From NCBI GenBank assembly GCA_017883385.1, contig JADGNQ010000043.1, positions 1 through 37,879 of the forward strand: a DNA stretch of 37,879 nt. The letters run 5' to 3'. The notes beneath the pieces were generated by a model. The model did no database searches. It saw only the letters and a program-made list of their open reading frames with translations, and had not been told where the DNA came from. Below are positions 1-18,167 of the stretch, piece by piece. Each line of letters opens with the position of its first letter. The first letter of the stretch is position 1. Made by a program: the position numbers and the translations under genes. The DNA is from Candidatus Sulfotelmatobacter sp. GTDB taxonomy: Bacteria > Acidobacteriota > Terriglobia > Terriglobales > Acidobacteriaceae.

Positions 1-92
1 CAAGGTTTCAAGGTTTCAAGGTTAAAACGTGTAGAGTTGACAGTGTGCCTTGAAACTCTGAAACCTTGGAACTTTGAAACCTGAAAATCTGA
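1..92. repeat. Short-word inverted repeat upstream of iscX
   Basis: Three near-perfect tandem copies of the 8-mer CAAGGTTT occupy 1-23. Degenerate copies of the reverse complement (CCTTGAAAC, TGAAACCTTGG, CTTTGAAACCT) fill 48-83. The two arms could pair into a long imperfect hairpin with a loop of about 24 nt. The element may begin outside the window. Its plan matches three other loci here that use different words. It sits just before the iscX ribosome binding site, so it probably lies in the 5' leader or promoter of that gene. Confidence 0.75.
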
Positions 93-104
93 GGAGCACT
101 GAGG

Positions 105-326
105 ATGGCAAAGCAACTAACCTGGGACGACGCCGAAGACATCGGCATTCTGCTATCCGAAACGCATCCTGAACTCGATCCTCTCGTCGTTCGCTTCACC
201 GACCTGCACCGCTACGTCACCGAACTGCCCGACTTCGCCGGCGATCCCAAAGCCTCGAACGAAGGCAAGCTGGAAGCGATTCAAATGGCCTGGCACGAAG
301 AGTTTCAAGATCGCACGCAAGCCTGA
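105..326 (+). CDS. iscX: IscX family protein (Fe-S assembly adaptor)
   Basis: A 73-residue acidic protein with the IscX/YfhJ layout: an N-terminal TWDDAEDIG segment, then LDPLVVRFTDLHRYV, a DFAGDP turn, SNEGKLEAIQMAW and an acidic end. IscX binds the cysteine desulfurase IscS and iron through its acidic face and tunes Fe-S cluster assembly in the cytoplasm. The length matches the family (about 65-75 residues). The ATG at 105 follows GAGGAG at 91-96. No iscS, iscU, hscA or fdx genes lie beside it here, so it is an orphan copy, or the end of an operon lying upstream of the window. The next gene is convergent and its stop is 1 bp away. Identification rests on the whole-length motif pattern. Confidence 0.9.
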   Translation: MAKQLTWDDAEDIGILLSETHPELDPLVVRFTDLHRYVTELPDFAGDPKASNEGKLEAIQMAWHEEFQDRTQA

Positions 327-327
327 T

Positions 328-2106
328 CTACTTCCCGGCCTCCGCCAGTTTCTTGTAGAACTTCTGCAGCGTGTAGAACGCCAGCTTGCGCTGACCTCGA
401 TTCGAAATCAGCCCTTTGCGATTGTGATAGTCCTGCACTCCGGGAAGCATGCGGGCCGGAGAGCGAAAATCCATCAGTAGCCACGGAGTCAGCCCCGCCA
501 GGTTCGGCATGCGCTCCACCATGGCGAGCTGGTGCTGAAATAAACTCTCCTGATATTCCTCGGTCCAGCGCTCGTCTCCATCGCCGTGGCGGCCATACTG
601 CGCGCTACCACCAAATTCGCTGACGATGAGCGGCTTGTTCCACTTCGATTTCCACTGCATCTTGTCGGCATCTTCCGGACGCCCCCAGTACCAGCCTAAA
701 TATTCGTTCAGAGCGAGGACGTCCACCACATCTCCCAGAGGATCGGTCAACGTGCGCTCGTCAGGACCTGTCTCATCCACGTGATTTAGTGCAGAAGTAA
801 TGAGCCGCGTGGAATCAAGTTCCCGCGCGTCTTGCGCGAGCCGTTTCAGAAACGTCAGCCGCTCCGGCTTCACCGGAGTTTCGTTGGAGAGCGACCACAG
901 GATCACAGACGCGCGGTTATGATCGCGCGCAATCATGTCACGCAGTTGCGCCTCCGCATTCTCCAGCGTCGCGGGATTCGACCAGTCAATATCCCAATAG
1001 ACGGGAATCTCCGACCAGACCAGCAGCCCCATCCGGTCGGCCAGCCGAATCTCATTCTCGTTATGCGGGTAATGGGCGAAGCGCACAAAGTTGCACCCCA
1101 GATCTTTCACCCATCCGAGGAGAGTCTCTGCGTCCTCTGGGCTAAAGGCGCGGCCTTCACGAAACGGTGCCTCCTCGTGCATCGAGATACCACGTAAAAA
1201 GATGGGCTTGCCATTCAGCAGAATGTTCGTTCCCTGCACTTCGATCGTACGAAAGCCAATCTGATCGTGGATCACGTCGGCGCCGCTGGCGAGGATCACT
1301 TCATAGAGCTTGGGATGCGCTGGGGACCATAGGTCCAGCTTCGCGGTGAAGTGAAAGCTCGCTCGGCCGTTTGCATCGGTGGCGAGCGTTTCGTGAACGC
1401 TCGCTTCCGGGATTTCCAGCGTGATCTTCTGTGCCGACTGGGCGCCATTCAATTGCACCCAGCCTGCAATGTCATTCTGTGAGCCACGCACCAGTTGCAC
1501 GGAATAGTCTTGCAGGAAAACAGTCGGAACCTCGACTAATGACACGTCGCGAGTAATCCCACCGTAACTCCACCAATCGAACTTCAACGCGGGCACAGCG
1601 TCGGCCCGGCGGACGTTGCTCACTTCGACGATCAGAGAGTTGTCGCCGTCTCGTAAGACCGAAGTCGCGTCGAAATTGAATGCAGTGAACCCGCCTTCAT
1701 GCTCGCCCAGCTTTTCTCCGTTCAGGTAAACCGCAGTCTGGTAGTTGGCCGCGCCGAAGTAGACGAACGTCCGCGTGTTCGCGCGCTTGTGGTAACTGAA
1801 CTCGCGCCGGTACCAGACCGGCCCTTCATAGAACATCAACTGTTCGCGCTGGGTATTCCAGTCTCCCGGAACGTTCAGAACAGGCGATGCGTCGAAACTG
1901 TACTCGACGCGATCGCTCTTGCTGCGCGGCTTTTCATCGCGGAAGAATCCGGCAGACTTGCCGTTGTCGAATGGATCCACAATGGCGTGCCACGCGCCAT
2001 TGAGGCTCACGGTCGCCCTACCAGGGACGTTCGCAATCAGCGTAGAAGGATCTGAGGAGGCATAGGCCCATCCGCTTAGCAGAAGCAGCAGCACGCAGCG
2101 TTTCAT
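328..2106 (-). CDS. Secreted glycoside hydrolase family 2 enzyme (beta-glucuronidase/beta-galactosidase-like)
   Basis: A GH2 beta-glycosidase of 592 residues if translation starts at the ATG at 2106. That start is preferred because it opens directly with a signal peptide (MKRCVLLLLLSGWAYA). An in-frame start at 2220 would add 38 unlikely residues. After the signal come the GH2 sugar-binding jelly roll (about 30-200, with GDWNTQ and WYRREF), an Ig-like domain (about 200-285) and the TIM barrel (about 290-590). The acid/base glutamate is in WSLSNET (about E409) and the nucleophile in IVSEFGG (about E497). RGISMHEE, a typical GH2 active-site loop, is present. The product is probably periplasmic or outer-membrane and removes terminal beta-linked sugars from plant or microbial glycans. 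The exact substrate cannot be read from sequence; the barrel motifs are nearer beta-glucuronidase than LacZ. Confidence 0.9.
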   Translation of the reverse strand: MKRCVLLLLLSGWAYASSDPSTLIANVPGRATVSLNGAWHAIVDPFDNGKSAGFFRDEKPRSKSDRVEYSFDASPVLNVPGDWNTQREQLMFYEGPVWYRREFSYHKRANTRTFVYFGAANYQTAVYLNGEKLGEHEGGFTAFNFDATSVLRDGDNSLIVEVSNVRRADAVPALKFDWWSYGGITRDVSLVEVPTVFLQDYSVQLVRGSQNDIAGWVQLNGAQSAQKITLEIPEASVHETLATDANGRASFHFTAKLDLWSPAHPKLYEVILASGADVIHDQIGFRTIEVQGTNILLNGKPIFLRGISMHEEAPFREGRAFSPEDAETLLGWVKDLGCNFVRFAHYPHNENEIRLADRMGLLVWSEIPVYWDIDWSNPATLENAEAQLRDMIARDHNRASVILWSLSNETPVKPERLTFLKRLAQDARELDSTRLITSALNHVDETGPDERTLTDPLGDVVDVLALNEYLGWYWGRPEDADKMQWKSKWNKPLIVSEFGGSAQYGRHGDGDERWTEEYQESLFQHQLAMVERMPNLAGLTPWLLMDFRSPARMLPGVQDYHNRKGLISNRGQRKLAFYTLQKFYKKLAEAGK

Positions 2107-2363
2107 GCAGAACCTCGGAGCCGCCCATAGTAGTGATCGAGACGAAGGGACGTCAATGAACGCCGACGAGGGAACCCGAACCGCGGTCGATTCGCGGTGG
2201 TTTTTACATTTCCATGACAACCAGCCCAGTGAGGTCCGCCTATCCTAGCGTTAATAAGGACCCGTGAATTCATAGGTCCTTCTCTCTCTCCGGCTAAACT
2301 TAAAGGGCGCGGCGACCGCCGTGCCCCATTTTTTCGACCGTCTTTCTGAACTCAGAATTTCCC

Positions 2364-3404
2364 TCAGCCAACCGGAACTGCTGCAGTCTCCTCCACATTC
2401 GCTTCGCGCAGAAACTTCGCCGCTTCCTCAGGTGGCGTGGGATTGATGTAGAAACCCGTGCCCCATTCAAATCCTGCCGTCTTGGTCAGCTTCGGCATGA
2501 ATTCGATGTGCCAGTGATAGTGGTCGTTGGTCGGGTCTTGCGCCGGCGAACTGTGGATCACCAGGTTGTAAGGCGGATTGTCGAGCACGCGGTCCGCCCG
2601 GCTGAGCAGATCTTTCAACGCGCGAGCCAGGTTCTCGAACATGTGCGACGACGAGTTTTCAAACGCCGATTCATGCTGCTTGGGCAGGATCCAGGTTTCG
2701 AATGGAAAGCGCGGAGCATATGGCGCCAGCGTGAGAAAATTCTCGTTTTCCGCCACTACCCGAGTGCCGGTGTCCATCTCCTGCCGGATGATGTCGCAGA
2801 ATACGCAGCGTTCCTTGTAGAGGAAGTACTGCTTTGCTCCTTCCAGCTCCTGCACCACGTTAATGGGAAGAATGGGCAATGCAATGAGCTGCGAGTGCGC
2901 ATGTTCCAGCGACGCTCCAGCCGCTTCCCCGTGATTCTTGAAAATCAGGATGTACTTGAACCGGCGATCTTTCTTCAGGTCCAGGATGCGGTCGCGGAAG
3001 GTCCACAACACATCTTCAATTCGCTTCGGCGGCAGCGTGGCCATGCTCGCCGTGTGGTCGGGCGTCTCGATGATCACCTCATGCGCCCCGATTCCGTTCA
3101 TCCGGTCGAACATCCCCTCGGCCTGGCGGTTCAACGTGCCCTCGATGCCCAGAGCCGGGAACTTGTTGGGTACTACACGGACGGTCCACCCGGGACTATC
3201 ACGCTGCGGCGCCGGTCCACCATTCGAGTTAGGCCGGTAGGCCTGGATTTCGGGGGGAGTCTTGCCTTCGTTCCCGTAGCAAAAGGGGCAGAATCCCCCT
3301 TTGATCTTCATATTCTCGCGGACAAAATCGGTGGGTCGCTTCGCGCGATCTGTCGAAATGATCACCCAACGGCCAACGATCGGATCTTTTCTAAGCTCAG
3401 GCAA
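2364..3404 (-). CDS. galT: Galactose-1-phosphate uridylyltransferase
   Basis: Leloir-pathway enzyme that exchanges UMP between UDP-glucose and galactose-1-phosphate. The 346-residue length is typical. Visible motifs are the N-terminal LRKDPIVGRWVIIS, the zinc cysteines in CPFC (C39, C42), the active-site HAHSQ (H168/H170/Q172, equivalent to the His-x-His-x-Gln of E. coli GalT, where the second His carries the uridylyl group) and the C-terminal HYHWHIEFMP (H297/H299). A second CxxC (CVFC, about 200-203) is also present. It lies 37 bp downstream of the yraN-like gene on the same strand and is probably co-transcribed. A secreted GH2 glycosidase lies downstream on the same strand, which could supply galactose or other hexoses, although a gap of about 250 bp separates them. 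Confidence 0.95.
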   Translation of the reverse strand: MPELRKDPIVGRWVIISTDRAKRPTDFVRENMKIKGGFCPFCYGNEGKTPPEIQAYRPNSNGGPAPQRDSPGWTVRVVPNKFPALGIEGTLNRQAEGMFDRMNGIGAHEVIIETPDHTASMATLPPKRIEDVLWTFRDRILDLKKDRRFKYILIFKNHGEAAGASLEHAHSQLIALPILPINVVQELEGAKQYFLYKERCVFCDIIRQEMDTGTRVVAENENFLTLAPYAPRFPFETWILPKQHESAFENSSSHMFENLARALKDLLSRADRVLDNPPYNLVIHSSPAQDPTNDHYHWHIEFMPKLTKTAGFEWGTGFYINPTPPEEAAKFLREANVEETAAVPVG

Positions 3405-3441
3405 TTACAAATTCCTTTCAGCGGGGCGCAAACTTCCTATT

Positions 3442-3891
3442 TTACGCCGACAGCGAGGCGTTACGAAACACTTCGATCTGGGGGCGCGACGCCGAACCGT
3501 CATAGTATACGCTTACAATATCGATTCTCCACTGGCACGATGGTGGGAGACGTCTCCGGTATTCCCGCGCCACTTCCGCCAGTTCCCGTCGTTTGTGCCG
3601 GTCCACGGCCGCCTCCGGAGGCTTTACATCTCTCGACGTCCGCGTCTTAACTTCGATAAAACAAAGAACATCTGCGTCCCAGCCAATCAAGTCGATCTCC
3701 CCGCGGCGACGCGGTGAACGAAAATTCCGCGCTACGATCGAATAACCCAGCTTCCTCAGATGAAAGTAAGCCTCTTCCTCACCTCGTATGCCAATCCGTT
3801 GGTGCCGCGGCCTATGGTCGGCCGGGAGAACCCGCTGCGCAACCCAATCCAGGCTGCGAATAACCGTTTTGGTGAGACCCGCGGGAAGCAT
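3442..3891 (-). CDS. UPF0102 (YraN-like) endonuclease-fold protein
   Basis: A 149-residue member of UPF0102, a family with a restriction-endonuclease-like fold. The family core is clear: GEEEAYFHLRKLGYSIVARN, then RRRGEIDLIGWD, then LCFIEVKTRT. The acidic/lysine residues (D67 and the E80-x-K82 pair) are placed as in PD-(D/E)xK nucleases. The N-terminal 35 residues are a basic, family-variable extension. The family often sits near rnhB or 16S methyltransferase genes; here it is the first gene of a short operon with galT. Biochemical function is not settled for most members, so nuclease activity is inferred from the fold. The start at 3891 is the only good one, since moving it inward would cut the conserved helix. 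Confidence 0.9.
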   Translation of the reverse strand: MLPAGLTKTVIRSLDWVAQRVLPADHRPRHQRIGIRGEEEAYFHLRKLGYSIVARNFRSPRRRGEIDLIGWDADVLCFIEVKTRTSRDVKPPEAAVDRHKRRELAEVAREYRRRLPPSCQWRIDIVSVYYDGSASRPQIEVFRNASLSA

Positions 3892-4049
3892 GACGAAGAG
3901 ACATCAGTGTAGTTTGGATTTCCGTCTCGGAAATGTGACGGCCCTCACATTCGGGCATGATTCAAGTCGTAGACTTCCCGAAAGCGGAAAGATGCGCACG
4001 TCCCCATCGGCCTCAAGTGGCTGTGCGAACTGCATTCGACCGCAGAAAA

Positions 4050-4077
4050 CAAGCCCACGGACGACGCCGCGGGCTTG
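4050..4077 (-). terminator. Possible minus-strand intrinsic terminator
   Basis: Read on the minus strand, CAAGCCC and GGGCTTG form a stem extended by three more pairs across one mismatch, and TTTTCT follows immediately. This would end a minus-strand transcript that starts upstream of yraN, or would act as an attenuator in the yraN leader. No gene on that strand is recognised upstream of it. Confidence 0.5.
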
Positions 4078-4317
4078 GTCGCATCCTCCCCCCAAGGAGG
4101 CAGCAACAAAAATTCAAATTCTTAGACTTGCGGAGCGCACCCTCTCGCGCGCTCCGCAAGTGTTCCACGGTACGAAGTGACCGTGAAATTCACGGCGCTG
4201 TTAGCGCCTTTCGCCATTTCCCTGACTACGAGCTCCTCGGACCGCGCAGTGCCACCGCCAGGGGCGGATACAAGGACAGCCGTCCCAAGGTTGAGCAAGG
4301 ATGATTGTGGCACGCCG

Positions 4318-4436
4318 CCCACTTTGTCCGACATTGGGCCCGCCGTCAATTCACGCCTCCTGCACACGCAGTTCACGCGCTAACTCGTTATTTCCAAGAC
4401 TGATACGTGGGCCTCTCACTCGGACAAAAGTGGTGG
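4318..4436. ncRNA. Candidate structured RNA element
   Basis: A closing helix of 13 pairs with one bulged A joins 4319-4331 to 4420-4433. Inside it a second helix of 6 pairs joins GGGCCC (4336-4341) to GGGCCT (4409-4414), and a small hairpin CTGC-ACAC-GCAG sits at 4360-4371. This nested layout over about 115 nt looks like a folded RNA, but the strand is unknown and no known class was recognised. Chance pairing in G+C-rich DNA is possible. Confidence 0.3.
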
Positions 4437-4491
4437 GTGGGATGGCACCAAGCGGCGATTTCGCCGGGCGTCATGGTGCGATAGACTCCAG

Positions 4492-6054
4492 ATGGGGAAA
4501 TCAACACAGAATTGCATGCAGCCAGCCGCGCAATCTCGCGAAGTCGTTCGCTTTGGAGTATTCGAGGCGGACGTGCCGGCCGGCGAGGTGCGAAAGAACG
4601 GCGTCAAGGTCAAGATTCAAGATCTGCCATTTCGGGCACTGAAACTCTTGCTGAGCCAGCCCAACGAAGTCCTCAGCCGGGAGCAATTCCGCCAGGCGCT
4701 CTGGCCCGAAGGCGTATTCGTGGACTTCGACCATGGGATCAGCAGTGCCATCAACCGGCTCCGGGACGCCTTAGGAGACTCCGCCGACAACCCCATCTTC
4801 ATCGAGACCGTGGAGCGTCGCGGCTATCGTTGGATCGCTCCGACTCACTTCCCAGCACCGCCAGTTCAACCAGGCCCGGTATTGGTCAAGTCGGACGCCG
4901 AAACTCCAGCCATCGGGGGCGTTCCCGTGCCGCCCGACGGCTGGCGTTGGTCGCTCGTCTTTCCCGTCGCTGCAATTGTTCTGGTTGTCTGGAGTTTTTG
5001 GCCAAGCCACCGCGCGGCCAAGGCAGGCACCACGAACCAGCCAGGCGCGGTGCCCCGGGCTTCCGACTCCTCCAGGCTCTCCGCCAACTCCGAGGCCGAG
5101 CAGTTATATCTGAAAGGCCGTTTCTACTGGGAGAAGCGCACAGCAGACGGGCTAAACAAGGCCGTGGATCAATTCACTCAGGCCATTGTTCACGATCCCA
5201 GCTATGCCCCGGCGTACGTAGGACTCGCCGACTGTTACAACCTGTTGCGCGAATACACTCTAATGCCAGCCAGCGAAGCTTATCCTCGCGCTCAGGCCGC
5301 AGCACAGAAGGCCGTCGAGCTCGACGATCAGTCTTCCGAGGCGCACGCCTCCCTCGCATTTGCTCTGTTTTACGGCGTATGGGACGTGCCCAACGCCGAG
5401 CACGAATTCCGCCGCGCCATCGATCTTGATCCCAACAACGCGGTCGCCCACCACTGGTATGCCACCTACCTCGCGACCGTTGGACGAAATCCCGAATCTG
5501 TGGCAGAAATTGAGCGGGCGCAAACACTCGATCCCGCTTCAAAGTCCGTTCTTGCCGATAAGGGGGACCTCCTGTGGGAGGCGGGAAGGCACGATGAGGG
5601 CGCTGCCCTGCTGAAACAGCTGGTAGTCACGGAACCGGATTTCGTTTCTCCGCACCGGTATCTGAAGGGCATGTACTTCGCCAGTGGCAACTACCCCAGC
5701 TATCTGCAAGAGTGGAAGAAGGAAGCCACCCTGATGCACGACAATTCAACTCTAAAACTCGTCGATGCAGCTGAAAGAGGCTTCGCGACCGGGGGCTCCC
5801 AAGGCATGCTGCGGAACCTGCTGGCGCAGCAAAAGAAACTCTACCAGCGCGGACAATTGTCGCCTTATTACCTAGCGCAGACGAACTCCCTGTTGGGGGA
5901 TAAGCTGGAAGCTCTTAAGTACTTGCAGATCGCTTACGACAAGCACGACGACGCCACTATTCAGATCGAAACCGATTCGGCTTTCAATAACCTGCACAAC
6001 GACCCCGCTTACAAGGCCTTGATCGCGCGACTCGGCTTTCCCGCCAGCAAATAG
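4492..6054 (+). CDS. CadC-like winged-helix regulator with membrane anchor and TPR domain
   Basis: A 520-residue one-component regulator of a type common in Acidobacteriota. Residues about 15-118 form an OmpR/CadC-type winged helix: FGVFEADVPAGEVRKNG, the recognition region LSREQFRQALWP, VDFDHGISSAINRLRDALGD, and the wing ETVERRGYRWIAP. A proline-rich linker is followed by one transmembrane segment (WRWSLVFPVAAIVLVVWSFW, 151-170). Residues about 190-515 carry tetratricopeptide-like repeats (for example AYVGLADCYNLLREY, AHASLAFALFYGVW, AVAHHWYATYLATVG), predicted outside the membrane. By analogy with CadC, it should bind DNA from the membrane in response to a periplasmic signal or partner. There is no receiver domain. 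The ATG at 4492 gives a complete winged helix. Its targets are unknown; the adjacent hairpin-rich gap is one candidate. Confidence 0.9.
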   Translation: MGKSTQNCMQPAAQSREVVRFGVFEADVPAGEVRKNGVKVKIQDLPFRALKLLLSQPNEVLSREQFRQALWPEGVFVDFDHGISSAINRLRDALGDSADNPIFIETVERRGYRWIAPTHFPAPPVQPGPVLVKSDAETPAIGGVPVPPDGWRWSLVFPVAAIVLVVWSFWPSHRAAKAGTTNQPGAVPRASDSSRLSANSEAEQLYLKGRFYWEKRTADGLNKAVDQFTQAIVHDPSYAPAYVGLADCYNLLREYTLMPASEAYPRAQAAAQKAVELDDQSSEAHASLAFALFYGVWDVPNAEHEFRRAIDLDPNNAVAHHWYATYLATVGRNPESVAEIERAQTLDPASKSVLADKGDLLWEAGRHDEGAALLKQLVVTEPDFVSPHRYLKGMYFASGNYPSYLQEWKKEATLMHDNSTLKLVDAAERGFATGGSQGMLRNLLAQQKKLYQRGQLSPYYLAQTNSLLGDKLEALKYLQIAYDKHDDATIQIETDSAFNNLHNDPAYKALIARLGFPASK

Positions 6055-6117
6055 CTCGGACTTTTGCAGACGGCCTGAGATTCATCCTTTGAGGGGAATG
6101 TTGACTCCCAAAAAGGA

Positions 6118-6141
6118 CGGGCAGGACCGAAGTCCTGCCCG
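6118..6141. terminator. Bidirectional intrinsic terminator
   Basis: A perfect 10-bp stem (CGGGCAGGAC/GTCCTGCCCG) has a CGAA loop on the plus strand, which is a UUCG loop on the minus strand. On the minus strand it is followed by TCC and a run of five T; on the plus strand CATCCG and TTTT follow. It sits between the convergent regulator gene and the aminotransferase gene and can serve both. Confidence 0.9.
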
Positions 6142-6164
6142 CATCCGTTTTCGCAAAGAAGAGC

Positions 6165-7544
6165 CTAGACACCTTTTCCCACGGTAGAGATGCATTCTTC
6201 GAGCACATCCACCGCGACATCAGCCTCTTCCTCGGTGACAATCAGCGGCGGACATATCCGGATCGTGCTCGGCCCGCAGCCCAGGAACAGCACACCGTGT
6301 TCGAACGCCATTTCGACGATGCGGTCGCGCTCGGCGTTCCCGTATTCCTTGGTGACCTTGTCCTTCACGATGTCGACGCCGATCATCAATCCGCGTCCGC
6401 GCACATCGCCCACCAGCTTCAGCTTTGAAGGCCAGTCGGCCATGCGCTTCATGATGTGATTACCCACGCTGGCCGAGTTCTCGAGCAAGTGCTCCTTCTC
6501 GATCACATCCAGCGTAGCCAGCGCCGCCGCCACGGCCACAGGGTTGCCACCGAAAGTGGAGGCGTGCGAACCGGGCACCCAGTCCATGATTTCCGCGCGC
6601 GTCATCGTGACGCCGAGGGGCATGCCCGAAGCAATGCCCTTCGCCATGCAGACCATGTCAGGCTCGACGCCCGTGTACTCGACGGCGAACCACTTGCCCG
6701 TGCGTCCAATGCCGCTCTGCACTTCGTCGACCACCAGCATGATGCCGTGACGGTCGCAGATGCGCCGCAGTTCCTGCATGAAGATCTTCGGAGCGACGAC
6801 GTAGCCGCCCTCGCCCTGCACCGGCTCTACGAAGATGGCCGCCACTTCTTCCGGAGCCAGCGTGGTCTTAAACAATTTCTCTTCGATGAAGCGGGCGCAG
6901 CCCAGCGCAAAGTTGTCTGGGTCTTGCGTGCCACCCACGCAGCCCCGGTAAACATCCGGATAGCGCACGTGCGTCACGCCCGGCACCAGCGGCGCGAAAC
7001 GTCGCCGCTGCTGCGGCTTCGACGCCGTCAGCGAAAGCGCACCCATGGTGCGTCCGTGAAACGCTCCGAAAAATGCGATCACGTTCTGCCGCTTGGTGTG
7101 GTACCGCGCCAGCTTCAGCGCACACTCGATCGCCTCCGCACCCGAGTTACCGTAGTAAACGCGATGCGGGCCCGGCATGGGCGCAATCTTCGAAAGCCGC
7201 GCCGCCAGGTCCACCATGTTTTCATAGTAGAAATCCGTGCCCGACATGTGGATCAGTTCGCCCGCTTGTTTCCGAATGGCGGCGACCACATCAGGATGGC
7301 AGTGGCCGGTCGACGTCACCGCGATGCCGGCGGAAAAATCAAAGAACTCGTTGCCGTCGACATCAGTGACAACAATGCCGCGTCCGCTTTTGGCCACCAT
7401 GGGGTACGATCGGGTATAGGACGGCGAAATGTATTTCTGATCGCCCTCAAGCACACGTTTGGCGTTGGGCCCGGGCAGTGCGGTCTTGATCTTGGGACCG
7501 ATGGCCGAAGAAACGGCGGTTGCGGTCATAGTCTTCGTGGTCAT
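6165..7544 (-). CDS. Class III PLP aminotransferase (4-aminobutyrate/acetylornithine type)
   Basis: A 459-residue fold-type I, PLP-dependent omega-aminotransferase. Visible signatures are the glycine-rich phosphate site (GNSGAEAIECALKLAR), AFHGRTMGAL, EPVQGEGGY, the PLP-pyridine aspartate in VVDEVQSGIGRTG (D273) and the Schiff-base lysine in MAKGIASGMPLG (K302), followed by STFGGNPVA. The closest named families are 4-aminobutyrate aminotransferase (GabT) and acetylornithine aminotransferase. The N-terminal 40 residues and overall length favour a GabT-like enzyme, but substrate cannot be decided from sequence. The ATG at 7544 has GGAGGA a few bases upstream. It is monocistronic in this window, with a strong terminator about 25 bp past its stop. 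No succinate-semialdehyde dehydrogenase gene is adjacent. Confidence 0.9.
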   Translation of the reverse strand: MTTKTMTATAVSSAIGPKIKTALPGPNAKRVLEGDQKYISPSYTRSYPMVAKSGRGIVVTDVDGNEFFDFSAGIAVTSTGHCHPDVVAAIRKQAGELIHMSGTDFYYENMVDLAARLSKIAPMPGPHRVYYGNSGAEAIECALKLARYHTKRQNVIAFFGAFHGRTMGALSLTASKPQQRRRFAPLVPGVTHVRYPDVYRGCVGGTQDPDNFALGCARFIEEKLFKTTLAPEEVAAIFVEPVQGEGGYVVAPKIFMQELRRICDRHGIMLVVDEVQSGIGRTGKWFAVEYTGVEPDMVCMAKGIASGMPLGVTMTRAEIMDWVPGSHASTFGGNPVAVAAALATLDVIEKEHLLENSASVGNHIMKRMADWPSKLKLVGDVRGRGLMIGVDIVKDKVTKEYGNAERDRIVEMAFEHGVLFLGCGPSTIRICPPLIVTEEEADVAVDVLEECISTVGKGV

Positions 7545-9183: not shown

Positions 9184-9429
9184 CTCCCCGCTCCCTGAGC
9201 CTTAGCATGGCTGCACCCTAGCGGTGGGGACTATTGCCTGTTCTCAACAGTTAGGATTTCACGCTTCCTCCAGTTAACCAATCGCAATCGGAGAACGCGG
9301 GAAAGCTCCCTCGACACGTGGTCGTTTCCGCTTTTGTTTCGGTGTGGAACTTAGGAACCTTGTGCGGAACACGTTCATTCCTCTGTTTGTTGGTTGTGAC
9401 TCATGCACTTGCTAATTGCTCATTGCTTG

Positions 9430-9986: not shown

Positions 9987-10475
9987 GACAACCCTCCTTC
10001 GCTCCAACACGTGCTACCTGCTGCTCCGAGATTTCGGATTGGGAAGCACGAACGTTAGCTGGCCCTTCACCGACATATTTGCGCACGTTATTGGGACGGC
10101 CAAGTTTGCCCCAAAAGCGTGGGTACACTCCGACGACGTTTGGGAGGCGTGCCCGTTCGGAGAGGCTAACGCGGCATTTTTATCGCAACAAAGACCCGAT
10201 GTCAGTGATGCTGGTCACGGCAAGGAGCATTGCCTACTGGCTATTCCAGCTAGCGTTGGCGGAGACAGCGTGGTTGTGCGGGCAGCCTTTGTCAATTGGC
10301 GAAACATCGCCATAGCCCTCATTGACCCCATGGGAAGGATTTGAATGGGATGATCTGATTACAACATTTGCTTGCTTCCGCATTGCCCGCAGAAAGGCTT
10401 GGTGCTGCTGACGAGAGAGTGTGGAGTCGAGAAATGTCGACCCAGGTCGGGCCAAGCGTGCGCTAGACTATCCCG
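9987..10475. other. Gap without recognisable gene
   Basis: About 490 bp between the divergent DUF1579-like and RDD genes. Open frames exist on both strands (for example about 9931-10344 plus), but they overlap each other, lack ribosome sites and resemble no family. No repeat, terminator or tRNA was seen. It presumably carries the two divergent promoters. Confidence 0.4.
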
Positions 10476-11018
10476 ATGACTCAGCAGTCGAAAGAGGCGA
10501 GACGCCGGTTTCACCCTCATGCCGGCACGCGTGCAGATTCGCTCGACGGGTTTCTACTGGCAACCTTCTGGCAAAGGCTGCTCGGATACTGCGTCGACCT
10601 GCTGGTTGCTGTGATCGTCTGGTTCCCTCTTGAATTCTCGTGGCGGCACTTTCTTCTTCATGAGACGGACATTCACCTCGTCTGGGACTTTCACGAAGCC
10701 GGGAACATCGCCGTGATGGTTCTCTATTGGGGATTGGCCCATTACTTTGGCAACGGACAAACGCCAGGCAAATGGGTTGCGCGCACAAGAGTTCTGTCGG
10801 TTACGAGCGAACGCATGGGACTTTGGCAGTCTGTCGAGCGCGGGTTGGGGTATGGCGCGGCGGTGCTGGAGGGAGGTTTGGGGTTCTTGCAGTTCTTTTG
10901 GGACCCTAATCGGATGTGTGCCCAGGATCGTCTCGCCGAGACGATTGTGATCGACGTGAGAAAACAGAAGGCAGAAGCGCCGATGGCTGGTGCTTCCGGG
11001 GCCTTTGATGCCAGCTAG
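10476..11018 (+). CDS. RDD family membrane protein
   Basis: A 180-residue protein with one RDD domain (about 28-160). It opens with FWQRLLGYCVDLLVAVIVWF, in which the arginine and aspartate of the name motif are kept. A second hydrophobic segment (IAVMVLYWGLAHYFG) runs into the conserved NGQTPGKWVARTRVLS. It ends with DPNRMCAQDRLAETIVI, the family's final aspartate region. RDD proteins are small inner-membrane proteins, some of which act in ion or compatible-solute transport; no specific role can be assigned here. The N-terminal 25 residues are hydrophilic and basic. The ATG at 10476 lacks a clear ribosome site. The next gene is 180 bp downstream on the same strand. Confidence 0.85.
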   Translation: MTQQSKEARRRFHPHAGTRADSLDGFLLATFWQRLLGYCVDLLVAVIVWFPLEFSWRHFLLHETDIHLVWDFHEAGNIAVMVLYWGLAHYFGNGQTPGKWVARTRVLSVTSERMGLWQSVERGLGYGAAVLEGGLGFLQFFWDPNRMCAQDRLAETIVIDVRKQKAEAPMAGASGAFDAS

Positions 11019-11198
11019 TCCGACCAACCCGAAAACCGACGATTAACAACAGCTATGTGTAGCCTGGCCAACCTGAGGGAATCTCCTCAATTGGCGATGA
11101 ACCGCCATATCACTCCTTGACACCTCTCCTCAACTTTAGAATCCAAACCTCCCTCGCGCTCGTCTGATATCTTTTAGTTCCTCCTGTTTCTCACGCCC

Positions 11199-12149
11199 AT
11201 GCACTCCGCACAGCGCCCAAGCCGGTGGATGGTAATTCTTGCCTTCGGACTCGTGTACCTGTTCTGGGGCTCGACCTACCTCGGCATCGACATCGCCGTG
11301 CAAACCATCCCTCCGGCCCTCATGTGCGCCGTGCGGTTTTCCATCGCCGGCGTAATCATGTTGGCGGTCTGCGCCGCCACCGGGCGGAAGATTCTCTATT
11401 CGCCAAAGCAGATCGCGCTCGCCGCAGTCGTAGGCTTGCTGCTTCTAATGGGCGGCAACCTCACGCTTTCGTATGCCGAACTCACCGTGTCGTCGGGCCT
11501 GGCCGCGCTTATCATTGCCATCACGCCGCTGTGGTTTCTTGTGCTCGACTCCCTGTTGCTCGGCGACCACCACATTTCCGGACGCGGCAAAGCGGGCCTC
11601 GCGCTGGGCATTGTGGGACTGTTCGTCCTGGTCTGGCCGCAGTTGCAATCCGGCACCATGGGACATCGCGAATTCTGGGCCTCGATCAGCCTGATCTTCG
11701 GATCGTTCACCTGGGCCCTTGGCTCCGTGCTCTCGAAGCGCTGGCAGTCCGGCATGGACGTATTCAGCGCCACCGGCTGGCAAGTCACCGCGGCAGGAGC
11801 CGGAAATCTCATCTTCGCGCTCATCAACGGCGACCTCTCACGCGCAACCTGGACCACCCGCGGCATCAGCGCCGTAATGTATCTGGTCGTCTGCGGTTCC
11901 TGGATCGGCTACACCGCCTACATCTGGCTGCTCGAACACGTCCCCACGTCCAAGGTCTCAACCTACGCCTATGTGAATCCTGTGGTGGCCGTGTTTCTCG
12001 GCTGGCTAATCCTGCACGAGCGCGTGGACCGTTTCATTCTGGCAGGAAGCGCGATCGTGGTGCTATCCGTCGTCCTGGTTACGAGCGCAAAGGTGAAGGA
12101 AAAGACGGTCGCGCAGGAACTCCCTGCGGTGGAAGCGGCAGGAGACTGA
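11199..12149 (+). CDS. EamA/DMT superfamily transporter
   Basis: A 316-residue member of the drug/metabolite transporter superfamily with ten predicted transmembrane helices in two EamA repeats (about 10-140 and 155-295). The first helix reads FGLVYLFWGSTYLGIDIAV, the typical EamA opening, and the YSPKQIALAAVVGLLLLMGGNLTL and LDSLLLGDHHISGRGKAGL regions follow the YedA/RhaT-like pattern. The second repeat contains VPTSKVSTYAYVNPVVAVFLGW, the most conserved stretch of the family, and LHERVDRFILAGSAIV. Such proteins usually export amino acids or other metabolites across the inner membrane. The substrate is unknown. It ends just before a word-type inverted repeat. Confidence 0.9.
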   Translation: MHSAQRPSRWMVILAFGLVYLFWGSTYLGIDIAVQTIPPALMCAVRFSIAGVIMLAVCAATGRKILYSPKQIALAAVVGLLLLMGGNLTLSYAELTVSSGLAALIIAITPLWFLVLDSLLLGDHHISGRGKAGLALGIVGLFVLVWPQLQSGTMGHREFWASISLIFGSFTWALGSVLSKRWQSGMDVFSATGWQVTAAGAGNLIFALINGDLSRATWTTRGISAVMYLVVCGSWIGYTAYIWLLEHVPTSKVSTYAYVNPVVAVFLGWLILHERVDRFILAGSAIVVLSVVLVTSAKVKEKTVAQELPAVEAAGD

Positions 12150-12152
12150 GGA

Positions 12153-12238
12153 CAGATTTCAGATTGCAGATTTCAGATTTGCCGAGTCGGATCTCGATCA
12201 ATCTGCGATCTGAAATCTACAATCTCAAATCTGCAATC
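12153..12238. repeat. Short-word inverted repeat between convergent genes
   Basis: The left arm (12153-12180) repeats CAGATTTCAGATT- and GCAGATTTCAGATTT-like words; the right arm (12199-12238) carries the reverse-complement words (ATCTGAAATCTACAATCT, CAAATCTGCAATC). A loop of about 18 nt separates the arms. It lies exactly between the stop codons of two convergent genes, so it may help end transcription, although no clean T-run follows. The layout matches the elements at 1-92, 14177-14497 and 16605-16740, but the word is different. Confidence 0.75.
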
Positions 12239-12938
12239 ACCTCGTCCCCTCTTCCTCCTCCTCCGCATCATTCACCACATCCACCACATGCCCGCGGATG
12301 GCGAACGTCTGCTTCGCTCCGCCTGCCGGTTCAAAGCTGACTCGCATCGGGCTTCGCTGCCACGAGGGCGCCGGGCACGCCGAGTCCGGCGCTGCATCGT
12401 CGGCCACACCGTCGTTCGACAGCGGCTTCTTCAGCACCGGCTTGCGCCGGCTCAATTGCGTCACCATGGCATAGGTCTTCTTCCCGTCATCGGAGACTCC
12501 GCAATAGGCAACGTAGTCCCTGTACCAACTGGCGGCAGAGTAGAACGCATCGAACTCCGGGAGGTTGACCGCCGAAACACGCCCGGTCATCCGGTCAACG
12601 AGCAGCCAGCCCCCCCGTTGCCACTGCCATCGGGAAGCGCCGGATTCTTCCGGCAAACTATCATTCACCCTAAACACTCGCCGCACCACAAGCAGCCGGT
12701 CCGTCACTTCGTGGGGTGACCCGACCACATACTCCTTGACCCGTCCATCCACTACGAGCGCTCGGATCTTAACGGTCAGCGGTTTCTCGTCGTCCGCACC
12801 CGTACCCGGCAACCACTGCACTGTGGTCCACTTGCCGAACGTGATCACATGAACCTTAGCTACCGCGCCGGCCGCGGCCGGAGACAGCAGCGCACAGAAC
12901 AACACACCAATGAGCTGAGTTCGCACAATCCATCGCAT
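12237..12938 (-). CDS. Exported protein of unknown function
   Basis: A 233-residue protein that I do not recognise. It begins with a signal peptide (MRWIVRTQLIGVLFCALLSPAAAGAVA). The mature part is rich in beta-strand-like, tryptophan-containing stretches (ITFGKWTTVQWLPG, RWQWQRGGWLLVDRMTGRV, FDAFYSAASWYRDYVAYCGVSDDGKK). It ends in an acidic tail with a run of glutamates (EEEEEGTR). Two cysteines (in YCGVS and DSACPAP) could form a disulfide after export. Codon use and strand are coherent over the full length, which supports a real gene. The stop overlaps the word repeat by two bases. It is convergent with the EamA transporter gene. Confidence 0.65.
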   Translation of the reverse strand: MRWIVRTQLIGVLFCALLSPAAAGAVAKVHVITFGKWTTVQWLPGTGADDEKPLTVKIRALVVDGRVKEYVVGSPHEVTDRLLVVRRVFRVNDSLPEESGASRWQWQRGGWLLVDRMTGRVSAVNLPEFDAFYSAASWYRDYVAYCGVSDDGKKTYAMVTQLSRRKPVLKKPLSNDGVADDAAPDSACPAPSWQRSPMRVSFEPAGGAKQTFAIRGHVVDVVNDAEEEEEGTR

Positions 12939-13142
12939 GAGGCGAGCCTAGGCAGGAAGTGGCCTCAGAAGCAAGGTTCCCGGTCACAACTCGGCCACAG
13001 AAGTGCCAAAGTGGGAAACGCTGCACTACTCAGGTGGGTGGTACTATTCCAAAAAACTGGCCTGGACCCCGGCGAAGACGGCAGAATCGCAGTAGAATGA
13101 GACGACTAGTTTTGCCCTCCACTCGTACTTCGTCGCACCCAG

Positions 13143-14174
<1,032 letters not shown>

Positions 14175-14176
14175 AG

Positions 14177-14497
14177 CAGTTCTCAGTTCTCAGTTCTCGG
14201 ACCTCAATTCTCAGTTCCCGGACCTCAGACTTCAACCCTCGCAGTTTACTAAAGCAGTCACGATTCGTATCAGGGCTTCGCTTCAGCGATGCCGCATGCG
14301 CCGCCGGATCGGACCGGCTTCAGCCGCCGCGAAGCATCATCGGCAAGGAAGGTGACTGGCCAAACTGTTTGGCCGCGAATCTCATTTCCGCAATCCTCCC
14401 GCAACAAAGTACAATCACCACGCTGTGTTTTCTGCATCCAATGTTGGGCTCAGTTCATCGGCAACTGAGAACTGAGAACTGAGAACTGAGAACTGCT
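14177..14497. repeat. Word-repeat pair (AGTTCTC / GAGAACT) flanking the HD-GYP to glycosyltransferase gap
   Basis: The left arm at 14177-14222 has three perfect tandem AGTTCTC 7-mers followed by degenerate copies. The right arm at 14463-14495 has at least four tandem GAGAACT 7-mers, the exact reverse complement. About 240 bp separate them, with no convincing gene inside. The right arm ends directly at the TTG start of the next gene, so it replaces the usual ribosome-binding region. This is the same architecture as the other word repeats but with a longer spacer. Confidence 0.8.
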
Positions 14498-14498
14498 C

Positions 14499-15287
14499 TT
14501 GGAGCCCACTTACAGCATCGTCATTCCGGCCTACAACGAGAGCACGCGCCTGGGCGCGACCCTCGAGAAGGTTCTCGCCTACGTGCGCGCGCAGGCATGG
14601 GATGCGGAGATCATCGTCGTTAACGACGGCTCCCGCGACAACACTGCCGACATTGTTCGAACTTTCGCCGCGAACGATCCGTCGCTGCGCCTGGTAGAGA
14701 ATCCCGGCAACCGTGGCAAGGGATACAGCGTGCGTAACGGCATGCTCAACGCCCGCGGAGGTATCGTGCTCTTCAGCGACGCCGACCTCTCGTCACCGAT
14801 CGAAGAAGCTGCCAAGCTTTTCCGTGCACTGGAAGACGGCGCCGATATCGCCATCGGCTCCCGCTGGCTGCGCGCCGAAACCCAGACGCAGCGCCAGCCC
14901 CTGCACCGCCAGCTCTTCGGCCGCATCTTCAACCTGCTCCTGCGCCTCACGCTCGGTCTGCAATTCGCGGACACCCAGTGCGGATTCAAAGCGTTCAGGC
15001 TGCCGGCGGTTCAGGCGATCTTCCCTCTGCAGAGAATCGAGCGCTGGGGATTCGATCCAGAGATACTCTTCCTGGCGCGAAAGTTGAAATTCAAAGTGCA
15101 GGAAGTCTCCGTCGCCTGGGCACACCGCGACGGAACCAGCATCAATCCGATCGTCGACGGCTCCCGCATGTTTCTAGAGATGCTGCGTATCCGCTGGTAT
15201 GACCTGAGTGGAAAGTACGACGGCGATCCGACGCCGACCAGCCCGCGAGTGAAGACGGTGCCCGGCCACCGCGGCCCTCAAGCCTAG
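14499..15287 (+). CDS. Family 2 glycosyltransferase, dolichyl-phosphate glucosyltransferase-like
   Basis: A 262-residue GT-A fold transferase. Visible parts are YSIVIPAYNESTRLG at the N-terminus, EIIVVNDGSRDNT (nucleotide-binding aspartates), GNRGKGYSVRNGML, and the metal-binding FSDADLSSP (DxD-type). Further on are IAIGSRWL, QLFGRIFNLLLRLTLGL, the acceptor-side DTQCGFKAFR and RWGFDPEILFLARKL. This order is characteristic of the branch that includes dolichyl/polyprenyl-phosphate beta-glucosyltransferases, which load a lipid-phosphate carrier at the inner membrane for glycan building. There is no C-terminal membrane pair, so it may be peripheral. The start is TTG at 14499; it lies against a tandem repeat and has no normal ribosome site, so expression may be low or the start could differ. 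Confidence 0.88.
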   Translation: MEPTYSIVIPAYNESTRLGATLEKVLAYVRAQAWDAEIIVVNDGSRDNTADIVRTFAANDPSLRLVENPGNRGKGYSVRNGMLNARGGIVLFSDADLSSPIEEAAKLFRALEDGADIAIGSRWLRAETQTQRQPLHRQLFGRIFNLLLRLTLGLQFADTQCGFKAFRLPAVQAIFPLQRIERWGFDPEILFLARKLKFKVQEVSVAWAHRDGTSINPIVDGSRMFLEMLRIRWYDLSGKYDGDPTPTSPRVKTVPGHRGPQA

Positions 15288-15399
15288 TTATAGATCACTC
15301 AGATGTCGGATCTTACCGACCCATCGCATCTCCGTTTTCATACCGAAGCGCCGGGCCTTCGCTTCGTCGCGAAGATACAGTCATGCCTGCCGAGTGCAG

Positions 15400-15485
15400 A
15401 GCCGCGAAGCGGCGGCACGTGAAAGCCCGCCACGGAAGTGGCGGGAGAGAACAGCAAAAATGGAATTGAGTCCCGCAAGGGACGG
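15400..15485. repeat. Composite hairpin element, copy 1
   Basis: Three perfect hairpins in a row: GCCGC-GAA-GCGGC (15401-15413), CCCGCCAC-GGAA-GTGGCGGG (15426-15445) and GTCCC-GCAA-GGGAC (15470-15483). The link TGGAATTGA precedes the last one and GGCAC follows. It lies between the glycosyltransferase and leuB stops. Related copies occur at 19297, 19432, 23256 and 26046 with different stem sequences but the same order. Confidence 0.85.
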
Positions 15486-15493
15486 CACCTCTT

Positions 15494-16597
15494 CTAAGCC
15501 GACTTCTCTGCCTGCCCCGAGCCCACGGCCTTCACTGCCTCAACGACACGCCGCCCCATTTCCGCCGTAGAGATCGCGACATGAGTCTTCCCGGCCAGAT
15601 CCGCCGTTCGCGCCCCCTGCGAAAGCACCGTCGACACCGCCTTCTCGACACACACCGCCTCCGCCTCCAACTGAAACGAATGCCGCAGCAACATCGCCAC
15701 CGACAAAATCGCACCGAGAGGATTCGCAATCCCCTTCCCCGCGATGTCCGGAGCGGACCCGTGCACCGGCTCATACAGCCCCACGGGCCCGCCAACGCTC
15801 GCCGAAGCGAGCAGTCCAAGCGAACCTACAACGCCACCAGCCTGATCCGACAGAATGTCCCCAAACATATTCTCGGTCAGCAAGACATCGAAATCCGTAG
15901 GCCGTTGCACCAACAGCATAGCAGCCGAATCGACATACTGATGCCCCAGCTTCACCTCGGGATAATCTTTCCCCACGCGCGTCACCACTTCGCGCCACAG
16001 CCTTGAGCATTCCAGCACATTGGCCTTGTCCACCGACAGAACCTTGCGCCGCCGCTTCATGGCCAACTCAAACGCCACGCGCGCGATCCGCTCGATTTCC
16101 GACTCGCTGTAACGCATGGTGTTGACCGCAACGCGTGAGCCGGGAGCTCCCTCGATCGCCCTCGGCTCCCCAAAGTAGGCTCCACCCAGCAATTCGCGCA
16201 CAATCATGATGTCGGTTCCGCGCACGATTTCCGCCCGCAACGGAGAGCAATCCTCCAGCGCCGGGAAGAAAACCGCGGGCCGCAGGTTGGCGTAAGCACC
16301 CAACTCGCGCCGTATGCGCAGCAACCCAGCCTCGGGCCGCAAATGACCCGGATTGTGATCGAACGCTGGACTCCCCACCGCACCCAGCAGTACGGCAGAC
16401 GACGCCAGGCAAGCTTGCACCGTGTCCGCTGGGAGTGGATCGTTCGCCACCGTGAGCGCCGCTCCACCAATAAGCTTGCGTTGAAGCTGGAGTTGGTGAC
16501 CAAAACCGTCAGCCACCGCCTGCAAAACGAGCACGGCCTGTTCAGTAACTTCCGGACCAATGCCGTCACCGGGGAGAATCGTAAGTCTCAGAATCAT
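15494..16597 (-). CDS. leuB: 3-isopropylmalate dehydrogenase
   Basis: Third step of leucine synthesis: NAD-dependent oxidative decarboxylation of 3-isopropylmalate in the cytoplasm. The 367-residue length is typical. Motifs are [16 protein letters not shown] at the N-terminus, [45 protein letters not shown] (the substrate-binding loop), the catalytic tyrosine in [17 protein letters not shown], the lysine in SVDKANVLE, and the metal aspartates in [38 protein letters not shown] forms the NAD site. It is downstream of leuA on the same strand with a gap of about 140 bp filled by a word repeat. leuC and leuD are not in the window. Confidence 0.96.
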
Positions 16598-16604
16598 GGG
16601 ACGT

Positions 16605-16740
16605 GATTGAGTAATTGGGAAATTTGGTAATTGGGAAATTGAGAATCGTGTAATTCTACCCTTCTGGACGGGACGGCTGCGCAGGAAGATTGCGGCTCTG
16701 CAAATTACTCAATTACAAAATTACCCAATTACTCAATCCC
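16605..16740. repeat. AT-rich word repeat between leuA and leuB
   Basis: The left arm, 16605-16643, is built of words like GATTGAGTAATTGGGAAATT. The right arm, 16701-16740, carries the reverse complement (AATTACCCAATTACTCAATC). The outer 15 bp pair perfectly and the rest pairs partly, giving a potential stem of about 38 bp around a loop of about 57 nt. It falls between leuA (stop overlapping its edge) and leuB, so it would form in the leuA-leuB message and could stabilise RNA ends or reduce readthrough. Confidence 0.8.
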
Positions 16741-18110: not shown

Positions 18111-18167
18111 GGATCTCCCCAAAACAAGAATGATGATCTATGGTACGGGCAGCAGCCGTAGAAGCAA

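What the first reader, a model, noticed from the sequence alone, without database searches (positions are those of the whole stretch)
1..16740. Four loci share one inverted-word architecture but each uses a different word
At 1-92 (CAAGGTTT), 12153-12238 (CAGATTTCAGATT), 14177-14497 (AGTTCTC) and 16605-16740 (GATTGAGTAATTGGG), short tandem words on one side face tandem reverse-complement words on the other. The words are unrelated between loci, so this is not a copied repeat. Either each locus grew its own palindrome (for example by strand switching and slippage at a hairpin), or there is a conserved mechanism or function that demands shape, not sequence. Three of the four lie between genes at positions where transcription ends or a start codon is reached. 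I know of no named element defined this way.
Basis: partly seen in the sequence, partly recalled or inferred. Interest (0 to 1): 0.8.

Follow-up and report, generated by a model that had tools for sequence, protein, structure and literature searches.

The report
Swappable word hairpins at gene edges
Between many neighbouring genes of these soil bacteria, short tandem "words" of DNA face their mirror-complement across the gap, often right up against the genes, and in related species the same gap can be empty or spelled with a quite different word, so the shape can outlive the sequence.

Summary
All four facing-word palindromes are present, lie between genes, and fold far better than shuffles (z -5 to -6). 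The inference from unrelated words is partly wrong: three of the words were searched through the genome and recur at other places; the fourth recurs at least once. Each is an entry of a shared vocabulary.

At the ferredoxin|iscX gap (locus 1), 28 related species show a 1-2 bp gap (5), palindromes built from three unrelated word types (CAAGGTTT, GGGCTTC, CAGCAYT-like; 15), or other states (8). Left arms pair with their own species' right arms (0 of 10,000 permutations as good). Locus 2 shows three matched words, one weakly; locus 3 two.

Two further rules emerged. Arrays abut coding sequence, at starts or stops (46 of 96 within 10 nt, about 16 expected). Polarity is nearly fixed: 150 of 154 (non-independent) comparisons. 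Convergent gaps are not favoured as they are by ordinary hairpins (p=0.0035); Y1-transposase neighbourhoods are not enriched.

Most likely these are self-propagating slippage/foldback arrays limited by coding edges. Function is unproven. The searches made found no published description.

The parts
1..23 (+). Locus 1 left arm, (CAAGGTTT)n, cut by the contig start; lies in the ferredoxin|iscX gap
   Evidence: complete gap seen in G001 locus L378
48..92 (+). Locus 1 right arm, (AAACCTTG)n-like, upstream of the iscX ribosome-binding region
   Evidence: RNA fold z -5.22
105..326 (+). iscX (Fe-S_assembly, PF04384), right flank of locus 1
   Evidence: E 1.2e-29
11199..12149 (+). EamA-family transporter, left flank of locus 2
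12153..12180 (+). Locus 2 left arm, (CAGATTT)n, beginning 3 nt past the EamA stop
12199..12238 (+). Locus 2 right arm, (AATCTGA/C)n, running into the stop codon of the convergent gene
   Evidence: fold z -5.08
12237..12938 (-). Hypothetical protein, no Pfam family at E 0.001, right flank of locus 2
13143..14174 (+). Response regulator with HD-type domain, left flank of locus 3
14177..14235 (+). Locus 3 left arm, (CAGTTCT)n, 2 nt past the stop; gene-proximal part pure, inner part degenerate
14241..14331 (+). Unrelated dispersed repeat nested between the locus-3 arms
   Evidence: query 66-156, with further places in the genome
14409..14415 (+). GTACAAT core between the arms, seen by eye in orthologous gaps with and without arms; probable promoter -10 element (inference)
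14463..14495 (+). Locus 3 right arm, (AACTGAG)n, ending 3 nt before the called TTG start of the glycosyltransferase
   Evidence: fold z -6.34
14499..15287 (+). Family 2 glycosyltransferase, right flank of locus 3
15494..16597 (-). leuB-like isopropylmalate dehydrogenase, left flank of locus 4
   Evidence: PF00180 E 6.7e-131
16605..16645 (-). Locus 4 arm next to the leuB start; reads (CAATTACY)n in the leuB sense
16702..16739 (-). Locus 4 arm next to the stop of the leuA-like gene; reads (GTAATTGR)n in the leuA sense
   Evidence: fold z -5.38
16740..18122 (-). leuA-like gene (HMGL-like plus HCS_D2), right flank of locus 4

Best explanation
The four loci belong to a genome-wide class of noncoding arrays ('gene-edge word palindromes'). 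SHOWN: a tandem array of a 7-8 nt word, from a vocabulary that recurs across the genome, often lies against the coding edge on one or both sides of an intergenic gap. Where both edges carry arrays, the two use the same word in inverted orientation in most cases. Words have a nearly fixed polarity relative to the gene within the genus. The same gap in related species is empty, one-armed, or carries another word on both arms. INFERRED: the arrays grow by replication slippage; the word is written onto the other edge of the gap by foldback (inverted) template switching, which yields the facing geometry; new words arrive by copying from other loci; growth and survival are limited by coding sequence, which leaves the arrays flush with start and stop codons; and deletion across the palindrome can return a gap to the empty state. 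On this view the RNA hairpin is mostly a by-product, tolerated or sometimes used. The polarity is most simply inheritance of word orientation during copying; I have not explained it further.
For: Class: 96 arrays in 664 gaps against 1 in one shuffle of each gap; of 9 gaps with arrays on both edges, 9 match inverted, against a mean of 1.0 when partners are permuted. Edge: 46 of 96 arrays within 10 nt of a coding edge, about 16 expected, including 11 of 34 against 2.1 in gaps of 250-700 nt; for AACTGAG arms outside genes 22 of 33 lie within 6 nt of the edge the word points to, 1 of 32 for the edge behind (3 arrays inside called genes were set aside). Polarity: 150 of 154 comparisons (not independent); 25 of 25 close AATTACYC pairs in the listed, truncated part; 5 of 5 CAAGGTTT pairs. 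Turnover: locus 1 has three unrelated matched word types plus empty gaps in 28 species, needing at least 6 changes among the three words in 13 species; locus 2 has AATCTGA, GGTCTGA and, weakly, TGACGCC; locus 3 has AACTGAG and CTGACGC with a GTACAAT core kept between the arms. Vocabulary: CTGACGC is tandem at 11 places in G023 and 8 in G019, and at none in this genome. One-armed states occur. Arm homogenisation by template switching is described for yeast inverted repeats (PMC8604942, abstract and passages).
Against: Within one word class a gap's arms pair no better than arms from different loci (own best in 13 of 33; means 0.661 and 0.628), so recent arm-to-arm copying is not shown. Some gaps have arms with different or diverged words (G004 at loci 3 and 4). 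Most edge arrays have no array on the other edge (38 one-edge gaps against 9 both-edge). Slippage and template switching do not by themselves predict polarity or flushness at starts and stops alike. Spacers studied in PMC8604942 were at most 70 bp, whereas some arms here are over 250 nt apart. Empty against filled gaps at locus 1 look like insertion of a whole palindrome. At locus 4 arms recur with little change in many species, which neutral turnover would not require. Outside this genus polarity is looser: 23 outward, 6 inward and 1 mixed among 112 loci.
Confidence: 0.45

Rival explanations
1. A mobile palindromic element of the REPIN/MITE sort: a whole word palindrome is inserted as a unit just after a stop codon by a transposase, for example a Y1 (IS200/IS605-like, TIRYT) enzyme.
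For: Locus 1 is a 1-2 bp gap in 5 of 28 species and an 82-145 bp gap with a palindrome in 15. In G001, G002 and G012 the 3' end of the ferredoxin gene (about 14 bp) is repeated, imperfectly in some, at the right of the insert; this genome shows the right-hand copy, its left side being cut. Y1_Tnp copy number and AACTGAG count correlate over 16 congeners (Spearman 0.68, p 0.0036; counts, computed; not corrected for genome size, completeness or phylogeny). TIR-associated Y1 transposases are reported in Koribacter and other Acidobacteria (PMC3733652, passages).
Against: No fixed sequence. Gaps beside Y1_Tnp genes carry arrays in 4 of 56, not above the 71 of 664 of ordinary gaps. Junction duplication is not the rule: 1 of 47 tandem-hairpin gaps, null 0.05. 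At locus 3 the arms flank a core shared with armless species and left-only arms exist, so the pair probably did not arrive as one unit there.
Confidence: 0.25
2. A selected RNA structure: the intercistronic hairpin ends, stabilises or insulates transcripts, so pairing is under selection and words change under that constraint.
For: Strong folds. Arrays are commoner at stop edges than start edges (39 and 20, against 521 and 665 array-free edges; odds ratio 2.5, p 0.001). Tandem hairpins tend to codirectional gaps (37 of 432 against 10 of 230, p 0.056). Locus-4 palindrome found in many species.
Against: Convergent gaps carry 4 of 97 tandem hairpins against 15 of 97 ordinary hairpins (contrast with codirectional gaps p 0.0035). 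Divergent gaps, with no shared transcript, carry 6 of 133. No terminator consensus at loci 2-4. One-armed and mismatched gaps persist. Replacement by unrelated words is not ordinary compensatory drift.
Confidence: 0.2
3. Single-strand words act as binding sites in leaders and trailers (the TAACTGA model of MacGregor 2015), and the facing arrangement follows from having the site at both gene edges.
For: MacGregor reports TAACTGA direct repeats mostly a few nucleotides upstream of start codons in forward orientation, and in one Bacteroidetes species a reverse set just after a stop (PMC4679880, abstract and passages), the same polarity as here.
Against: About a dozen different words (by eye) do the same here, which one binding protein would hardly read; stop edges are used more than start edges; that survey reports one inverted set among 170.
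Confidence: 0.07
4. Chance or assembly artefact.
For: The window genome is a fragmented assembly, some arrays sit at contig ends, and locus 1 is at a contig end.
Against: Shuffles and reversed-pattern controls are near zero. Such arrays occur in relatives with few contigs, e.g. G014 (about 30), and in named assemblies.
Confidence: 0.02

Closest known systems
TAACTGA heptamer direct repeats of Beggiatoaceae, Cyanobacteria and Bacteroidetes (MacGregor 2015, PMC4679880)
   Same: Tandem heptamers, intergenic, in one genome mostly ending a few nucleotides before start codons in forward orientation, patchy phylogeny; the word is close to AACTGAG
   Different: One word, mostly start-side, one inverted set among 170; here many words, both edges, facing pairs, word replacement at orthologous gaps
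STRR-type heptanucleotide repeats of cyanobacteria (recalled) and simple sequence repeats of 5-11 nt units (as cited in PMC4679880, passages)
   Same: Tandem 7-mers dispersed through one genome
   Different: To my recollection not defined as inverted pairs or tied to gene edges
REP / REPIN elements with RAYT or TIRYT transposases
   Same: Dispersed extragenic palindromes, families differing between species
   Different: Those are 20-40 bp units, most with a GTAG or CGTC tag (PMC3733652, abstract start and passages); here no fixed sequence, tandem arms, no link to Y1 genes found
Inverted-repeat homogenisation by template switching (quasi-palindrome correction)
   Same: Makes the two arms of an inverted repeat match, whatever their sequence
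   Different: Described for short arms and spacers (PMC8604942, abstract and passages); does not predict tandem words, coding-edge placement or polarity
Intrinsic (Rho-independent) terminators
   Same: Hairpin after a stop codon; inverted repeats peak 50-80 bp past stops in Bacteria (PMC13155455, passages)
   Different: No stem plus T run found at loci 2-4, not favoured in convergent gaps, inter-arm distance up to about 250-300 nt

Membership tests
Heptamer direct-repeat arrays (TAACTGA/STRR type) | Tandem 7-mer arrays dispersed in intergenic DNA | tested here: met
Heptamer direct-repeat arrays (TAACTGA/STRR type) | One word per genome, mainly forward before start codons | tested here: not met
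   many words in G014; 39 stop-edge against 20 start-edge arrays
REP/REPIN | Fixed 20-40 bp palindrome | tested here: not met
   words differ between loci and between orthologous gaps
REP/REPIN | GTAG or CGTC tag at one end | not tested
   tags not searched
REP/REPIN | Associated with a Y1 (RAYT) transposase gene | tested here: not met
   4 of 56 gaps beside Y1_Tnp carry arrays; copy-number correlation 0.68, uncorrected
MITE | Target-site duplication | tested here: inconclusive
   junction duplication at locus 1 in some species, but 1 of 47 in the wider set
Rho-independent terminator | G+C-rich stem followed by a T run | tested here: not met
   none at loci 2-4; locus 1 not scanned
Rho-independent terminator | Preferred in convergent gaps | tested here: not met
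   4 of 97 against 15 of 97 for non-tandem hairpins
Known Rfam RNA | Covariance-model match at the gathering score | tested here: not met
   four Acido-Lenti-1 matches in the window, none at the four loci
Template-switch (quasi-palindrome) products | Arms match each other more closely than other copies of the same sequence | tested here: not met
   13 of 33; means 0.661 and 0.628

The most novel reading that the evidence does not exclude
A propagating noncoding element whose heritable identity is geometry rather than sequence: inverted word arrays locked to coding edges, with T/G-rich words reading away from the gene on both sides of a gap, written by a dedicated directional synthesis (primase- or telomerase-like short-template copying) that can exchange the word while keeping the shape. 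A pointer, seen by eye only and not tested: most heptads contain CAG, TAG or CGG, so the other strand carries CTG, CTA or CCG; from memory, CTG and CTA are bacterial primase start triplets. No enzyme has been identified.
Probability: 0.12. Interest if true: 0.92.

Novelty: new variant of a known kind. Interest (0 to 1): 0.74.

Why it matters
Repeat classes are normally defined by sequence, so searches by alignment miss an element that keeps its shape and place but swaps its word. If the rules hold, they account for a visible part of intergenic DNA in these bacteria, give a natural experiment on how palindromes are written and erased (one gap, one set of species, several unrelated words), and predict that gap geometry can be followed across species where sequence cannot. 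They also put single-word reports such as the TAACTGA repeats into a broader frame.

Tried and rejected
Terminator reading: rejected as the general explanation by gap-orientation statistics and the consensus scan. Transposase link: Y1_Tnp neighbourhoods not enriched; the copy-number correlation is noted but uncorrected. Single insertion of a palindrome everywhere: contradicted at locus 3 by one-armed species and the core between the arms. General target duplication: not found. Exact arm copying: not shown; the register test in that call (in-register better in 44 of 45) picks the best register and so carries little weight. Breaks tailed and joined at both ends (telomere-like capping) was considered: it would give the geometry and polarity but not the native core between the arms.

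Limits. Gene calls come from my own hexamer caller. G023 contributed few arrays (11 in 144 gaps), G014 most (50 in 201), this genome 35 in 319. Of 97 hairpins scoring 14 or more, 8 of intermediate tandemness are in neither group. The keyword classes put L402 under GGGCTTC wrongly; the permutation result does not use classes. In the CAGCAYT-like group L381 is a variant and two gaps pair weakly. Related species are not independent, so permutation and polarity counts overstate independence. The leuA+leuB tree is a quick one with 10 open forks of 27 and incomplete G012 and G022 rows; all six locus-1 states together need 14 changes, shuffled mean 16.0, as low in 13 of 200, so states are at most weakly clustered. 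The 20 own AACTGAG sites were picked by hand from the listings, several because a facing pair was already visible, so 8 of 20 with a partner is not an unbiased rate; some others are cut by contig ends. Words of period 9-10 (ACGAAGGAC type) form facing pairs mostly away from gene edges and A-rich on the left arm; they do not obey the edge and polarity rules.


Full report
Setting. The window begins at base 1 of contig C336 of a 6.8 Mb assembly in 446 contigs. Flanking genes are iscX, an EamA transporter, an unnamed protein, an HD-domain response regulator, a family 2 glycosyltransferase, leuB and a leuA-like gene.

The four loci. Each has tandem arrays on both sides and folds as a long hairpin, z -5.2 (locus 1), -5.1 (2), -6.3 (3) and -5.4 (4). 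All four fill gaps between genes: locus 1 codirectional (ferredoxin|iscX, seen complete in relatives), locus 2 convergent, locus 3 codirectional, locus 4 codirectional on the minus strand.

More than chance, and not unique. A search of 741,749 bases found 12 facing-word loci against 1, 0 and 0 in shuffles, about nine of the 12 word-like by eye. Complementarity between the two ends of a gap exceeds that of permuted ends: score 20 or more in 5 of 311 gaps here, null 0.25; 14 or more in 14 of 187 in G014, null 0.25, and 4 of 136 in G023, null 0. In 664 gaps of 80-700 nt (this genome, and 400 kb each of relatives G014 and G023) there are 96 tandem arrays against 1 in shuffled gaps. Nine gaps have arrays at both edges, and all nine match inverted; permuted partners give 1.0 on average, at most 2; 38 gaps have an array at one edge only. 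By alignment, 47 of 662 gaps of 60-420 nt hold a tandem-word hairpin, with more than ten distinct words by eye, period mostly 7 or 8. The window's words recur: AACTGAG 325 matches against 2 controls, CAAGGTTT 31 against 3, AATTACYC 18 against 0 in this genome and present in 34 of 41 genomes of the genus examined, this one included; the AATCTGA word recurs at C355:69975.

Placement and polarity. 46 of 96 arrays end within 10 nt of a coding edge against about 16 expected for random placement; in gaps of 250-700 nt it is 11 of 34 against 2.1. For AACTGAG arms in this genome, 22 of 33 lie within 6 nt of the coding edge the word points to (17 stops and 16 starts were counted among the edges pointed to), against 1 of 32 for the edge behind; three arrays inside called genes were set aside. 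Related edge arrays have the same orientation relative to the gene in 150 of 154 comparisons (not independent). In the listed, truncated part I count 25 close AATTACYC pairs, all outward. In one search all five close CAAGGTTT pairs have the same polarity. Read away from the gene the edge arrays average T 0.32, A 0.19, G 0.29, C 0.20, T exceeding A in 44 of 59, against T 0.22-0.24, A 0.21-0.22, G 0.27-0.29, C 0.27 at array-free edges. Arrays are commoner at stop than at start edges (39 and 20, against 521 and 665 array-free edges).

Word turnover at orthologous gaps. Locus 1: 38 of 41 genomes had an iscX match and 30 loci were fetched; 28 of these carry the ferredoxin homologue upstream. Gap lengths are 1-2 bp in five species and 11 bp in one; CAAGGTTT palindromes in four (and in this genome); GGGCTTC palindromes in six; CAGCAYT-like palindromes in five, two of them weak; the remaining seven have other, degenerate or one-armed sequence. 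Left arms pair with own right arms better than with those of other species: summed score 316, 0 of 10,000 permutations as high, over 21 gaps of 60 nt or more including this genome's truncated one. On a leuA+leuB tree the three words need at least 6 changes among 13 species. Locus 2: of 30 loci, 20 are syntenic and 16 have gaps of 60 nt or more; matched palindromes use AATCTGA (this genome, G022), GGTCTGA (G001, G012) and, weakly (score 12), TGACGCC (G019), while G050 has a left-only AACTGAG array and several species have none. Locus 3: 27 gaps compared, about half without arms; AACTGAG here and in relatives, CTGACGC on both arms in G023, left-only arms in G014 and G042, unlike arms in G004, with a GTACAAT core between the arms and also in armless species. 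Locus 4: 12 of 27 gaps of 60 nt or more have arms pairing at score 14 or more with AATTACYC-type words, diverging arms in some; by eye several other species carry a different hairpin there. The CTGACGC word is tandem at 11 places in G023 and 8 in G019 and at none in this genome, so the word that replaces another at a gap is one that recurs in that species.

What it is not. Tandem hairpins occur in 37 of 432 codirectional, 4 of 97 convergent and 6 of 133 divergent gaps; ordinary hairpins in 24, 15 and 3. The contrast between convergent and codirectional is significant (p 0.0035) and unlike terminators. No terminator-like site was found at loci 2-4. Gaps beside Y1 transposases are not enriched (4 of 56). 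Junction duplication, seen at locus 1 in some species, is not general (1 of 47).

Results against my reading. Within a word class, arms of one gap match no better than arms of different gaps, so the evidence is for a shared word, not a shared copy. Outside the genus the pattern is looser: of 112 loci from a collection scan that hit its limit, 23 show outward pairs, 6 inward, 1 both and 82 none within 400 bp. ACGAAGGAC-type words of period 9-10 break the edge and polarity rules. Two genomes of other families of the class also carry arrays (6 in 30 gaps, 2 in 22), mostly not at gene edges in these small samples.

Mechanism. The geometry, the word sharing and the turnover fit arrays that grow by slippage and are written across a gap by foldback template switching, new words entering from elsewhere in the genome and coding sequence setting the limit. 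Template switching between inverted repeats is documented in yeast (PMC8604942; abstract and passages seen). These steps are inferred. Polarity and flushness are the parts least explained; they are also the best handles for a more novel reading, a directional synthesis that starts at gene edges.

Known relatives. The nearest printed case is the TAACTGA repeats of Beggiatoaceae and others (PMC4679880; abstract, passages and one section seen). Searches for this architecture or for its words (open-licence papers only, mostly seen as listings) returned nothing I could see that describes facing words at gene edges or word replacement at orthologous gaps. Subscription literature was not searched.

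Noticed in passing
window 15400-15445, 19296-19341, 19431-19477, 23255-23300 (minus strand): Four Acido-Lenti-1 RNA matches above the gathering score within 38 kb, one only just.
   Followed up: no
window 14241-14331: A dispersed repeat unrelated to the words, with further places in the genome, sits between the arms of locus 3.
   Followed up: no
L021 14085-14163, L024 17585-17670 and similar: Facing words of period 9-10 (ACGAAGGAC type) in the same genome, mostly away from gene edges and with the opposite strand bias; perhaps a separate class.
   Followed up: partly
edge arrays listed: By eye most heptad words contain CAG, TAG or CGG plus four free letters when read away from the gene; the other strand carries CTG, CTA or CCG. 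Not tested statistically.
   Followed up: no
L253 1229-5940 (Acidobacteriales NC_groundwater_985): Several facing AACTGAG pairs within 7 kb, some arms within a few nt of predicted gene ends; a word-dense genome worth a full census.
   Followed up: partly
L378, L380, L382, window 80-104: In some species the last ~14 bp of the ferredoxin gene, with its stop, are repeated just before iscX, beside the word palindrome or its remnant.
   Followed up: partly
C2 132052-132186, C2 69159-69277; G004 gap: Another hairpin phrase (TGTCATCCTGAGC-like facing its complement) occupies gaps, in G004 at the gap orthologous to window 15288-15493.
   Followed up: no
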